From NCBI GenBank assembly GCA_027443745.1, contig DAIAZB010000693.1:1-9636 (forward strand): a stretch of DNA of 9,636 bases. The letters are read 5' to 3'. Within the stretch, counting starts at the first letter, position 1, and each line of letters starts with the position of its first letter. The translations under genes were made by a program, and so were the position numbers. The notes beneath the pieces were generated by a model. The model made no database searches. It saw only the letters and a program-made list of their open reading frames with translations, and was not told where the DNA came from. Shown here in pieces: positions 1 to 9,636 of this stretch. Origin of the DNA: Thiomonas sp. (GTDB lineage: Bacteria; Pseudomonadota; Gammaproteobacteria; Burkholderiales; Burkholderiaceae).

Positions 1-304
1 CCTGGACGAACGCGTCGGCCGGCAGCGGCGCGGCGATGTTCCAGGTCTGCTCCCCGCATTGCGGCGCATACTGCCCGTTGAAGGCAGGCGCCAGCGGCTC
101 GGATTCCCAGGCCGTGAGCAGGTTGGCAGTCGGCGGCAACCGACCCGACACCACCTGCCCGTTCCAGACGATGCCCACCTGCATGAACAAGGCGGCCAGG
201 ATGCGCTGGGCGAATGCGTCGGCCGATAGGGTCGCGGCGATGTTCAAGGTCTGCTCCCCGCACTGCGGCGAATACTGCCCGGTGAAGGCAGGGGCAAGCG
301 GTTG
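1..304 (-). repeat. Diverged in-frame tandem duplication inside dacB (204-base offset)
   Basis: Bases 1 to about 98 align without gaps to 205 to about 302, with roughly 13 mismatches counted by eye (about 87% identity). The offset of 204 bases is exactly 68 codons, so frame is kept. In protein, QPLAPAFTGQYSPQCGEQTL (from residue 241) repeats as EPLAPAFNGQYAPQCGEQTW (from residue 309), and similarity continues to the edge. Residues 225-240 and 293-308 are unrelated, so the repeat begins near the shared PLA. The far copy is cut by the window edge. Confidence 0.85.
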
Positions 305-7285: not shown

Positions 7286-8116
7286 TCACGCCACCTTCAA
7301 GCCCTTGAGCTCCGGTTTCGGGTCGGGATCGCGGATGTCCATGGCCTGGAGCGCTCGCACCACCAGCCGCGCCACCAACAGGTTGCGGATGGGTTTGCGG
7401 TCTGCCGGGACGATGAACCAGGGGGCATGCCGGGCGTTGCTGCGTTGCAGGGCGGCCTCATAGGTGTCCTGATAGCGGCGCCACCATCGACGCTCCGACA
7501 GGTCGGATGGGTCGAACTTCCAGTGTTTGGCCGGGTTGTCGATGCGCTCCTGCAGGCGCTCGCGCTGTTCCTCATGGCCGATATGCAGGAAGCACTTGAT
7601 GATGGTCGTGTTGTTCTGCGCCAGCATGCGCTCGAAGTCGGCAATCTGTGCCAGGCGCCGATCGAATTCAGGGATGTCGATCTGCTCATGCACGAGATTG
7701 ATCACCGGATCTTCGTAGTGGCTGCGGTTGAACACGCCGATACAGCCCCGCGGGGGCACCTGTGCGTGCACCCGCCACAGAAAGTCGTGCCGCTGCTCCA
7801 GAGCGGTCGGAAAGCTGAATGACGCCGCGCGCATGCCCAGGGGGTTGACTCCCGTGAAGACGGCCTTGGTCGTGCTGTCCTTGCCGGCCGAGTCCATGCC
7901 CTGCAGCACCACCAGCAGCGCTCGATCCTTGCGGGTGAACATGCGGTCTTGGCGTTCGCCAATGTCCTCGCGCAGCTGTTCGAGCTCTGCTTCGACCCCG
8001 TTCTTGCCGCTGTATTCGGGCAAGTCGATGGCGGTGTCGCGCTTGTCCAGCTTGGGCGCTTCACCCTCTTCGAAGCCGAGATCGCTCATCGATTTCATCG
8101 CTTTGAGTTGGCTCAT
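7286..8116 (-). CDS. Polyphosphate kinase 2 family protein (polyphosphate:nucleotide phosphotransferase)
   Basis: The product is 276 residues. PPK2 enzymes transfer phosphate between polyphosphate and nucleotides (AMP, ADP or GDP, depending on class). Walker A is GMDSAGKD (residues 73-80), followed by STTKAVFTGVNPLG; Walker B lies in GVFNRSHYEDP (127-137); the lid module is around ERRWWRRYQDTYE (208-220). This is a single-domain PPK2 of the kind annotated as polyphosphate:nucleotide phosphotransferase. I cannot tell from sequence alone whether AMP or ADP is the acceptor. ATG 8116 is firmly set by AGGAGG (complement of 8125-8130), eight bases upstream; the frame stays open to 8341 but that part lacks family similarity. 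Divergent from the DAHP synthase leader, sharing the intergenic region 8117-8299. Confidence 0.93.
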   Translation of the reverse strand: MSQLKAMKSMSDLGFEEGEAPKLDKRDTAIDLPEYSGKNGVEAELEQLREDIGERQDRMFTRKDRALLVVLQGMDSAGKDSTTKAVFTGVNPLGMRAASFSFPTALEQRHDFLWRVHAQVPPRGCIGVFNRSHYEDPVINLVHEQIDIPEFDRRLAQIADFERMLAQNNTTIIKCFLHIGHEEQRERLQERIDNPAKHWKFDPSDLSERRWWRRYQDTYEAALQRSNARHAPWFIVPADRKPIRNLLVARLVVRALQAMDIRDPDPKPELKGLKVA

Positions 8117-8244: not shown

Positions 8245-8274
8245 TTGCGGCCGCGGCGCGAACGCGACTACACT
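8245..8274 (+). promoter_or_regulatory. Sigma70-type promoter of the DAHP synthase leader transcript
   Basis: -35 TTGCGG (8245-8250) and -10 TACACT (8269-8274) are separated by 18 bases. The expected start is near A8281, giving a 5' leader of about 19 bases before the leader peptide ATG. The placement just upstream of the leader ORF supports the call. Confidence 0.55.
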
Positions 8275-8299
8275 CATCGCACTGATTTTCCAAGCTGCC

Positions 8300-8377
8300 A
8301 TGTTCAATTCCGGTTTTTACTTTTATTTCTGGTTCTCGCACCGTGCCGGCGGAGGGAGAGGGCAGCGTTCAGCCTGA
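8300..8377 (+). CDS. Aromatic-rich leader peptide of the DAHP synthase attenuator
   Basis: A 25-codon ORF begins MFNSGFYFYFWFSH and ends in TGA at 8375-8377. Eight of its first twelve residues are aromatic, with seven in a row (residues 6-12: five-letter set F, Y, W; in all five Phe, two Tyr, one Trp). That is the hallmark of a peptide that makes the ribosome pause when charged tRNA-Phe, -Tyr or -Trp is scarce, as in the enteric pheA and trp leaders. The rest (RAGGGRGQRSA) has no obvious function. It sits about 19 bases after a predicted transcription start and 15 bases before an intrinsic terminator, with the DAHP synthase gene beyond. No good Shine-Dalgarno is visible, the weakest point. 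Phe and Tyr codons include TTT and TAT, against the strong local bias for C-ending codons. The frame is open upstream to 7949, but that part is antisense to ppk2. Confidence 0.85.
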   Translation: MFNSGFYFYFWFSHRAGGGRGQRSA

Positions 8378-8405
8378 AACGATCAAATCCCCAAAAACCG
8401 CCGGC
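8345..8405 (+). promoter_or_regulatory. Candidate antiterminator pairing in the leader RNA
   Basis: GCCGGCGG at 8345-8352, starting ten bases after the last aromatic codon, is exactly complementary to CCGCCGGC at 8398-8405, which contains the whole GC part of the terminator's 5' arm. Pairing of the two would prevent the terminator. A ribosome halted at the aromatic codons 6-10 would leave 8345-8352 exposed. I see no clear upstream segment that would sequester it when translation is fast, so the model is incomplete. Confidence 0.5.
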
Positions 8406-8425
8406 TCAACCCGGCGGTTTTTTTT
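8393..8425 (+). terminator. Intrinsic terminator acting as attenuator upstream of the DAHP synthase gene
   Basis: The stem AAAAACCGCCGG (8393-8404) pairs with 8411-8422 around a six-base loop CTCAAC, and eight T (8418-8425) follow. Seven G-C pairs form its core. It begins 15 bases after the leader peptide stop and lies upstream of the DAHP synthase start, with no gene between to terminate. Its position makes it an attenuator rather than an end-of-gene terminator. Confidence 0.88.
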
Positions 8426-8530
8426 CGCCGGGCCGGCAAGGAACCCGCCATGTTCGACGAACACTCCCAGTCCTCCATCCTGCGGCAAGCGCAGCAACCC
8501 AAGCATTCCACTCAGCCAGGAGAAAGCTCC

Positions 8531-9636
8531 ATGCCCCCGAAGTCGACTGCCCCGATGCCCGAGTGGCGCGCCGCTCCGTCCGAGAAGACCTCGGCCACCG
8601 ACGATGAACGCATCAAGGACGTCATGCCGCTGCCACCGCCCGAACATCTCATCCGCTTTTTTCCGATTGCCGGTACGCCGGTCGAGCGGCTGATTCAGGA
8701 CACGCGCAAGGCGGTGCACCGCATCGTGCAGGGAGACGACGACCGTTTGCTTCTCGTCATCGGCCCCTGCTCCATCCACGACCCCAAGGCCGCGCGTGAG
8801 TACGCCGAGCGCCTGGCGCGCGAGCGCCGCCGCCACGCCGGCGAGCTCGAAGTGGTGATGCGGGTGTACTTCGAGAAGCCGCGCACCACGGTGGGCTGGA
8901 AAGGGCTGATCAACGACCCCTACCTGGACCAGAGTTTCCGCATCGACGAAGGCCTGCGCATGGCGCGTGAACTGCTCATCGACATCAACCGCCTGGGCGT
9001 GCCGGCCGGCAGCGAATTTCTCGACGTGATCTCGCCGCAATACATCGGCGACCTCATCTCCTGGGGCGCCATTGGCGCACGCACGACCGAAAGTCAGGTG
9101 CACCGCGAACTGGCCTCCGGTCTGTCGGCGCCCATCGGCTTCAAGAATGGCACCGACGGCAACCTGCGCATCGCCATCGACGCCATCCAGGCGGCACGCC
9201 GGCCACATTCGTTCCTCTCGGTGCACAAGAGCGGCCAGGTGGCCATCGTCCAGACACGCGGCAACAAGGACACCCACGTCATTCTGCGCGGCGGCAAGGC
9301 GCCGAACTACGACGCCGCCAGTGTGCGCGAAGCCTGTGAGCAACTCGAGGCGGCGAAGGTCGAATGCCGCTTGATGATCGATTGCTCGCACGCCAACAGC
9401 GACAAAAAACCCGAGCGCCAGCTCGACGTGGCGCAGAACATCGCCGCCCAACTAGGGGCTGGCGAGCGCTGTATTTTCGGTGTCATGGCGGAAAGCCATC
9501 TGGTCGGCGGAGCGCAGAAATTCACCCCCGGCAAGGACGCCGCCAGCAGCCTGACCTACGGCCAGAGCATCACCGACGGTTGCCTGCCGTGGGACGAGTC
9601 GGTGCAACTCATGGACACCTTGGCCGCCGGGGTGAA
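8531..9636 (+). CDS. aroG: 3-deoxy-7-phosphoheptulonate (DAHP) synthase, class I AroG/F/H type, 3' end outside window
   Basis: There are 368 codons before the right edge; few should be missing. The enzyme condenses PEP and erythrose 4-phosphate to DAHP, the first step of aromatic amino acid synthesis. Metal and active-site residues are in place: GPCSIHD with Cys80 (E. coli AroG Cys61), FEKPRTT with Lys116 (Lys97), DCSHANS with His287 (His268), MAESHLVGG with Glu321 (Glu302), and SITDGC with Asp349 (Asp326). EFLDVISPQY keeps Asp165 and Pro169, matching E. coli Asp146 and Pro150, whose mutation relieves Phe inhibition; allosteric control is thus plausible, but which amino acid inhibits is not certain. 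ATG 8531 follows AGGAG (8518-8522) by eight bases. An in-frame ATG 8450 with AAGGA at 8438-8442 would add 27 Gln/Ser-rich residues. Expression is probably governed by the attenuator upstream. Confidence 0.95.
   Translation, partial: MPPKSTAPMPEWRAAPSEKTSATDDERIKDVMPLPPPEHLIRFFPIAGTPVERLIQDTRKAVHRIVQGDDDRLLLVIGPCSIHDPKAAREYAERLARERRRHAGELEVVMRVYFEKPRTTVGWKGLINDPYLDQSFRIDEGLRMARELLIDINRLGVPAGSEFLDVISPQYIGDLISWGAIGARTTESQVHRELASGLSAPIGFKNGTDGNLRIAIDAIQAARRPHSFLSVHKSGQVAIVQTRGNKDTHVILRGGKAPNYDAASVREACEQLEAAKVECRLMIDCSHANSDKKPERQLDVAQNIAAQLGAGERCIFGVMAESHLVGGAQKFTPGKDAASSLTYGQSITDGCLPWDESVQLMDTLAAGV

What the first reader, a model, noticed from the sequence alone, without database searches (positions are those of the whole stretch)
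8281..8425. Complete aromatic amino acid attenuator in front of a DAHP synthase gene
In about 145 bases, in order: a sigma70-like promoter immediately upstream, a 25-codon ORF with seven consecutive aromatic codons (FYFYFWF), and an intrinsic terminator with eight T, all before the DAHP synthase start. Leader-peptide attenuation is well known for enteric trp and pheA; E. coli aroG is instead controlled by the TyrR repressor. Here the shikimate entry enzyme appears to sense Phe, Tyr and Trp together through one mixed run, a multi-amino-acid sensor. I cannot tell from the sequence whether this has been described in betaproteobacteria.
Basis: partly seen in the sequence, partly recalled or inferred. 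Interest (0 to 1): 0.85.

Follow-up and report, generated by a model that had tools for sequence, protein, structure and literature searches.

The report
Aromatic attenuator before DAHP synthase
A short switch in front of the gene for the first enzyme of aromatic amino acid synthesis appears to read a run of phenylalanine, tyrosine and tryptophan codons and to stop transcription when these amino acids are plentiful; related switches stand before the same gene in many other proteobacteria.

Summary
Window 8300-8377 is a 25-codon ORF with FYFYFWF at codons 6-12, followed by an intrinsic terminator (8393-8425) and a type I DAHP synthase. It is conserved: 106 of 106 strong covariance-model hits in 399 genomes of the order lie before a DAHP synthase. 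Relatives occur in a Xanthomonas/Lysobacter-like family and in another class, probably Alphaproteobacteria. It is patchy: 25 of 78 loci in an even sample of the order. Run codons are TTY 309/TTR 2 and TAY 137/TAR 0 in 84 leaders, so it is translated. Best reading: ribosome-mediated transcription attenuation by aromatic aminoacyl-tRNA supply (about 0.9). Sensing of all three amino acids is plausible in the window (about 0.5), but Trp is missing from 72 of 177 distinct leaders; Phe is in all. In 74 of 197 loci the ATG sits 6-8 nt after an extended -10, suggesting leaderless mRNA. Nearest published case seen: C. glutamicum aroR-aroF.

The parts
8245..8250 (+). candidate -35 hexamer TTGCGG
   Evidence: read from sequence; 3 of 6 to consensus; CTTGC or TTGGC words recur near this place in many same-genus loci (by eye)
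8269..8274 (+). candidate -10 hexamer TACACT (18-nt spacer; transcription start expected near 8281)
   Evidence: TACACT/TATACT 22-26 nt before the leader ATG in 20 of 24 same-genus loci; not reported by the consensus scan
8300..8377 (+). leader peptide ORF, 25 codons plus TGA, no Shine-Dalgarno seen
   Evidence: leader ORFs in relatives
8315..8335 (+). control codons FYFYFWF (codons 6-12)
   Evidence: codon bias over 84 leaders TTY 309/TTR 2, TAY 137/TAR 0, TGG 70
8333..8337 (+). segment 1, 5' strand of protector hairpin 1:2 (UUCUC)
   Evidence: hairpin 8333-8360, -12.8 kcal/mol, z -1.62; pairs counted on 84 leaders
8345..8352 (+). segment 2, antiterminator strand GCCGGCGG
   Evidence: pairs perfectly with 8398-8405; minimum-energy fold of 8333-8408 is this helix; a core was placed in 193 of 202 distinct leaders, in three reading frames
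8356..8360 (+). 3' strand of protector hairpin 1:2 (GAGAG)
8398..8405 (+). segment 3, CCGCCGGC: shared by antiterminator 2:3 and terminator 3:4
8393..8425 (+). intrinsic terminator (stem 8393-8404/8411-8422, T run 8418-8425)
   Evidence: -18.8 kcal/mol, z -5.05; 96.7% of cells paired, 4 pairs with a change on both sides in 84 leaders
8531..9634 (+). DAHP synthase, type I (AroG-like), runs off the window; upstream in-frame ATG at 8450
   Evidence: PF00793; relatives of 87-88% identity align from residue 19-22; AGGAG at 8518-8522

Best explanation
A ribosome-mediated transcription attenuator of the trp/his/pheA type that sets DAHP synthase expression by the supply of aromatic aminoacyl-tRNAs. 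RNA polymerase starts near 8281; a ribosome begins the 25-codon leader. If charged tRNA-Phe, -Tyr or -Trp is short, it stalls on codons 9-12, covers segment 1 (8333-8337) and leaves segment 2 (8345-8352) free. Segment 2 pairs with segment 3 (8398-8405), the terminator cannot form, and the gene is transcribed. If all are plentiful, the ribosome runs on; segment 2 is covered by it or held in hairpin 1:2, segment 3 pairs with segment 4, and transcription ends at about 8425. Shown here by comparison: conserved aromatic ORF under coding selection, conserved terminator, conserved antiterminator strand with compensatory changes, ribosome-sized spacing. Inferred: promoter, actual translation, stalling, read-through and which amino acid counts. 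Probability of the attenuator mechanism about 0.9; that Phe, Tyr and Trp each relieve termination in the window's organism about 0.5.
For: 106 of 106 model hits with E <= 1.5e-5 among 399 genomes of the order, one per genome, lie before a DAHP synthase; 104 of 106 keep an ORF with at least 3 aromatic codons in 8 (strand and order checked for 74 of them). Of 110 loci fetched through DAHP synthase, 96 have leader and terminator. Codon bias shows translation. Antiterminator: 85.5% of cells paired, 21 cells changed on both sides against 7.0 in shuffles; own helix mean 7.20 bp against 6.60 (sd 0.06, maximum 6.80 of 1000) with partners swapped. Terminator: 96.7% paired, 30 such cells against 6.4. 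Hairpin 1:2: 85.2%, 16 against 6.5. The segment-2 core starts 12-20 nt (median 14) after the first base of the last aromatic codon in 78 of 84 leaders, about a ribosome's reach. With the run masked, mean P(2:3) over 84 leaders is 0.98 against 0.41 unmasked and 0.53 with a ribosome at the stop. The upstream regions of 17 other DAHP synthase paralogues carry no leader. No TyrR-type HTH in 41 relatives.
Against: No expression data. In the window itself P(2:3) is 1.0 in all three modelled states, so this simple model shows no switch there; and over all leaders part of the rise on masking is trivial, since it removes competing pairings. The window's stop codon is 23 nt past segment 2, so a ribosome at the stop would not cover it; the off state then rests on ribosome passage or on hairpin 1:2, which is only weakly significant in the window (z -1.62; 10 of 200 shuffles as good). 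RNAalifold on the 84 leaders predicts the terminator alone. The number of pairs changed on both sides and of pair types do not exceed the shuffles, and some slid versions of hairpin 1:2 come close. The whole leader is not unusually stable (z -1.27). The promoter match is weak. The leader is missing in 53 of 78 loci of an even sample of the order, and in Polynucleobacter, two Cupriavidus, Rhodocyclus, Thauera and other loci.
Confidence: 0.88

Rival explanations
1. The attenuator senses mainly phenylalanine; Tyr and Trp codons only lengthen the run or arise by drift between similar codons.
For: Phe is in 177 of 177 distinct leaders and is the commonest residue of the run (764 F, 300 Y, 116 W). 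The published analogue answers to Phe but not Tyr. The enzyme is nearest to Phe-sensitive AroG among solved structures.
Against: Position-specific pattern: Trp stands at the codon 17-19 nt before the antiterminator core in 43 of 84 leaders, one codon later in 12, at the codon 35-37 nt before in 8, and in 8 other cells; drift alone would scatter it, though relatedness of the leaders also concentrates it. 47 of 84 leaders have all three residues in the effective zone.
Confidence: 0.35
2. The terminated leader RNA or the leader peptide also acts in trans, as S. meliloti rnTrpL/peTrpL does; attenuation is only one output.
For: In many relatives the predicted RNA starts at or next to the ATG, as rnTrpL does (passage). 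Peptide parts outside the run are alike within lineages.
Against: The parts of the peptide outside the run differ between lineages, while the RNA motif GGCGG stays in three different frames.
Confidence: 0.08
3. A plain terminator of an upstream gene plus a small hydrophobic ORF, without regulation.
For: In several relatives the 3' end of tldD lies just upstream on the same strand (by eye: L046, L071, L082; L041, L047, L051), and the terminator could serve it.
Against: In the window a PPK2 gene on the minus strand separates tldD from the leader; the element has its own -10; codon bias, spacing and antiterminator stay unexplained.
Confidence: 0.03

Closest known systems
aroR-aroF attenuator of Corynebacterium glutamicum (Neshat et al. 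2014, not read; known here only through passages of the review PMC11802643)
   Same: Leader peptide with Phe-Tyr-Phe before an operon with DAHP synthase; transcription attenuation by ribosome stalling.
   Different: Another phylum; three aromatic residues, no Trp mentioned in the passage; Phe limitation induces, Tyr availability has no effect. Its sequence was not compared here.
pheL-pheA and trpL-trpEDCBA of enterics (named in PMC11802643 passages; details recalled)
   Same: Control codons for the end product, alternative antiterminator and terminator.
   Different: Each reads one amino acid and stands before a terminal-branch gene; this one mixes all three before the common entry enzyme.
thr and ilv type multi-amino-acid leaders (their mixed codons recalled; thr and ilvGMEDA named as attenuated in a passage of PMC1183508)
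   Same: One leader reads several amino acids of a branched pathway.
   Different: Threonine/isoleucine and branched-chain, not aromatic, amino acids.
rnTrpL of Sinorhizobium meliloti (passage of PMC7298713)
   Same: Leader RNA begins with the ATG of the leader ORF, as predicted for many relatives of this element.
   Different: Before trpE(G) and Trp-specific (recalled); the window's own leader has a predicted 5' UTR of about 17-19 nt.
aroF and aroH 5' regions in Shewanella (table in PMC2659441)
   Same: DAHP synthase genes listed with possible attenuation: aroF 'Attenuator sensing tyr-tRNA' (citing a 1980 E. coli paper), aroH 'Possible transcription termination'.
   Different: No mixed aromatic leader is described in the passages seen.

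Membership tests
Ribosome-mediated leader-peptide transcription attenuator | Short translated ORF with clustered codons for the pathway's product | tested here: met
   coding bias (translation itself not measured)
Ribosome-mediated leader-peptide transcription attenuator | Intrinsic terminator between ORF and first gene | tested here: met
   106 of 106 strong model hits before DAHP synthase
Ribosome-mediated leader-peptide transcription attenuator | Antiterminator that shares a strand with the terminator | tested here: met
   limits told in the Against line
Ribosome-mediated leader-peptide transcription attenuator | Protector/pause hairpin 1:2 | tested here: inconclusive
   some support over 84 leaders, weak in the window (z -1.62), not predicted by RNAalifold
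Ribosome-mediated leader-peptide transcription attenuator | Ribosome-sized distance from control codons to antiterminator strand | tested here: met
   12-20 nt in 78 of 84
Ribosome-mediated leader-peptide transcription attenuator | Read-through depends on charged tRNA | not testable with these tools
   needs RNA or reporter data
Known Rfam leader families (RF00512 Leu_leader and others) | Score above the family's gathering threshold | tested here: not met
   at the leader only a sub-threshold Leu_leader match, 8315-8424, 21.6 bits against 50, E 0.81
T-box | Match to the T-box covariance model | tested here: not met
   no T-box match up to E 1 in the window
C. glutamicum aroR attenuator | Homology of leader sequence | not tested
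   aroR sequence not fetched

The most novel reading that the evidence does not exclude
An old, homologous attenuator family controls one DAHP synthase paralogue across beta-, some gamma- and probably alphaproteobacteria.
Probability: 0.4. Interest if true: 0.72.

Novelty: new variant of a known kind. Interest (0 to 1): 0.6.

Why it matters
DAHP synthase is the entry point of the shikimate pathway. Its control in E. coli by TyrR and TrpR is textbook material, yet no TyrR-type HTH was found in 41 relatives. A widely conserved RNA switch would supply regulation there, would be a natural example of one leader integrating three end products, and could serve as a sensor in aromatic-overproducing strains. 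The apparent start of the RNA at the leader ATG in many lineages makes it a good test case for attenuation on leaderless mRNA.

Tried and rejected
Rejected: chance run (next longest in the window is 3); T-box or known Rfam element; terminator of tldD (PPK2 intervenes in the window); specialised leaders on paralogues (0 of 17 upstream regions; L210 had no usable upstream and is not counted). Weaker model hits are mostly not this element: of 17 fetched places with E from 9.6e-5 to 1.1e-3 only L185 is; L184 is a Leu-rich leader before a leuA-like gene, and in L191 the DAHP synthase is a convergent neighbour. Places weaker than that were not fetched. Of the 13 places, five weak ones outside the order (L225-L229, E 4e-4 to 6.6e-4) have no DAHP synthase.

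Led nowhere: consensus promoter and terminator scan; full-leader fold; fold model for the window, the same in all states. The tree of 85 DAHP synthases needs at least 12 changes of leader presence and cannot tell gain from loss.

Literature: ten full-text searches showed no description of a mixed aromatic DAHP synthase attenuator in proteobacteria. What I saw are listings, cut (20 of 23; 30 of 148; 25 of 53), and passages of PMC2965389, PMC5343134, PMC12125101, PMC11802643, PMC7298713, PMC2659441, PMC4833913, PMC1183508; no paper was read whole. Two likely places of prior description, Vitreschak et al. 2004 (recalled) and Lopatovskaya et al. 2010 (seen as a reference), were not read, nor was Neshat et al. 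2014, so priority is not established.

Rows dropped: from 96 leader loci plus the window I left out L003 (same contig as L031) and 12 near-identical rows (the window was one of them, against L001, and in A1 it stands in place of L001), leaving 84. In one search strict filters missed some visible leaders (L072, L103, L177, L185, L234, L249, L254, L255), so 198 of 241 is a lower bound; the 241 include the 17 paralogues. In one search, 9 of 202 distinct leaders had no clear core and were left out. In one search, six rows with 4-5 aromatic codons in eight but no terminator (L273, L307, L311, L314, L326, L329) and two with 3 and a terminator-like site (L304, L309) were counted as having no leader. 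My first table had false misses because minus-strand loci were not turned; corrected.

Full report
Observation. ORF 8300-8377 encodes MFNSGFYFYFWFSHRAGGGRGQRSA with seven aromatic codons at 8315-8335. A 12-pair terminator at 8393-8425 folds at -18.8 kcal/mol (z -5.05), and a type I DAHP synthase follows. The promoter is weak by consensus, but a -10 of TACACT or TATACT stands 22-26 nt before the ATG in 20 of 24 same-genus loci. No other run of more than three aromatic codons exists in the six frames of the window.

Conservation. Loci were fetched through the protein: the best 30 places in 60 relatives and the 80 best named loci of at least 589. Of these 110 loci 96 have an aromatic leader ORF and terminator, and 14 do not: L057, L060, L061 (only 16 bases upstream held), L063, L064, L065, L075, L077, L089, L096, L099, L107, L109, L110 (in L072 and L103 the terminator was read by eye). 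Examples are MSAKFYFYFFWYLRPLADREG in Burkholderia, MTCFFFTGYFYFSNSNPKAVE in Rugamonas and MQTRAAIFFGFYFWFSVPGGREARV in Hydrogenophaga.

Independent search. A covariance model was built from 84 leaders and run on 399 genomes of the order. 136 genomes match at E <= 0.01; 106 places have E <= 1.5e-5, one per genome (my count of the list). All 106 lie before a DAHP synthase (104; the other two are L029 and L030). For 74 of them one search confirmed strand and order; for 30 (L111-L140) one search shows the leader upstream. 104 of 106 keep at least three aromatic codons in eight; L181 and L260 do not. In 370 genomes of the class, four hits with E <= 3.9e-9 fall outside the order, all before DAHP synthase with leaders such as MNAARASFYFWYYFPKPLAEEGLRSP; three are of a family whose enzymes group with a Stenotrophomonas-labelled MAG of Lysobacteraceae. 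In 299 genomes of the phylum, 42 match at E <= 1e-4: 18 in the order, 5 in that family, 19 outside the class. Of those 19 I fetched 14; all have an aromatic leader such as MITVATNYFWYFSYDSSLAAGGSRSI, and DAHP synthase follows.

Patchiness. In an even sample of 100 genomes of the order, 80 had a DAHP synthase match. I examined the best locus of 78 (G077 and G121, 36-37% identity, left out): 25 have the leader, 53 do not (three of the 25 were in hand and eight). A tree of 85 enzymes places rows without leader inside leader-bearing groups, with at least 12 changes. Repeated loss from an old element is the simplest reading, but the tree cannot tell gain from loss.

Translation. In the span 14-37 nt before the antiterminator core of 84 leaders, in-frame codons are TTT 215, TTC 94, TTA 0, TTG 2; TAT 60, TAC 77, TAA 0, TAG 0; TGG 70, TGC 2. 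Synonymous change is free, non-aromatic change is not, so the run is read as protein.

Antiterminator. GCCGGCGG (8345-8352) is a perfect partner of CCGCCGGC (8398-8405), the terminator's 5' arm; with the upstream part removed this helix is the minimum-energy fold. In relatives the core GGYGG lies in frame 2 in 117, frame 0 in 66 and frame 1 in 10 of 193 leaders, so the RNA, not the peptide, is kept. The base before the core, its partner and the terminator's other strand change together: C-G-C 71, U-A-U 59, A-U-A 3, with breaks such as C-A-U 12 and A-A-U 11. On the far side of the core U-A-U (35) and C-G-C (10) pair, but A-A-U (96), C-A-U (23) and A-G-C (13) do not, so there the helix usually ends. 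Cells paired, cells changed on both sides and the covariation score exceed all 500 shuffles for helices 2:3, 3:4 and 1:2. The number of pairs changed on both sides does so only for 3:4, and the number of pair types for none. Cells count related sequences, so these numbers overstate independence. RNAalifold alone finds only 3:4.

Geometry. The core starts 12-20 nt after the first base of the last aromatic codon in 78 of 84 leaders. With an assumed 13-nt reach, a ribosome waiting at the last few codons covers segment 1 and frees segment 2. In the window these are Y9, F10, W11 and, at the edge, F12. Across 84 leaders Trp is concentrated at the codon 17-19 nt before the core (43 of 84), and 47 of 84 have all three residues in the effective zone. 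This argues for, but does not prove, three-amino-acid sensing; Phe is the only residue in every distinct leader.

Weak point. For the window the fold model predicts 2:3 in every state, and its stop codon lies beyond segment 2. The off state must come from ribosome cover during passage or from hairpin 1:2. Only experiment can settle this.

Leaderless relatives. In 77 of 197 leader loci an extended -10 (TGnTAnnnT) ends 4-10 nt before the ATG, 74 of them 6-8 nt; shuffled upstream sequence gives 0.4%. SD-like words precede the leader ATG in 8 of 197. A similar TATATG stands about 7 nt before the ATG in several leaders from outside the class (by eye). The window and most of its genus instead have a predicted 5' UTR of roughly 15-19 nt. 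No transcription start has been mapped.

Comparison. It works like trp, his and pheA attenuators. The nearest case seen is C. glutamicum aroR before aroF. Distinct here are the aromatic three-way mix, the spread over proteobacterial classes, and predicted leaderlessness in many lineages; each has a separate precedent. Hence a new variant of a known kind. Priority is not established, since three relevant papers could not be read.

Noticed in passing
L025-L072, 50 nt before the leader ATG: Extended -10 such as TGTGCTACATT ending 6-8 nt before the leader ATG in most of these loci: predicted leaderless leader mRNA.
   Followed up: partly
window 2-97 and 206-301: Two direct copies of 96 nt, 88% identical, 204 nt apart, inside a Peptidase_S13 (DacB-like) gene on the minus strand.
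   Followed up: partly
L184: A Leu-rich leader (..FIAALLSLLLLSRL..) with terminator, and downstream a 2-isopropylmalate-synthase-like ORF (named by eye), found by the same model.
   Followed up: no
L189: Tyr/Phe/Trp-bearing short ORF (MVTFSVVYNVYFYWYRSSGGAKGC) where no DAHP synthase was found downstream.
   Followed up: no
L181 and L260: DAHP synthase loci whose model hit has no aromatic run; the terminator is seen in L181. Possible decaying attenuators.
   Followed up: no
window 7289-8116 (-): PPK2 gene lies between tldD and the leader; in several relatives the tldD end is just upstream.
   Followed up: partly
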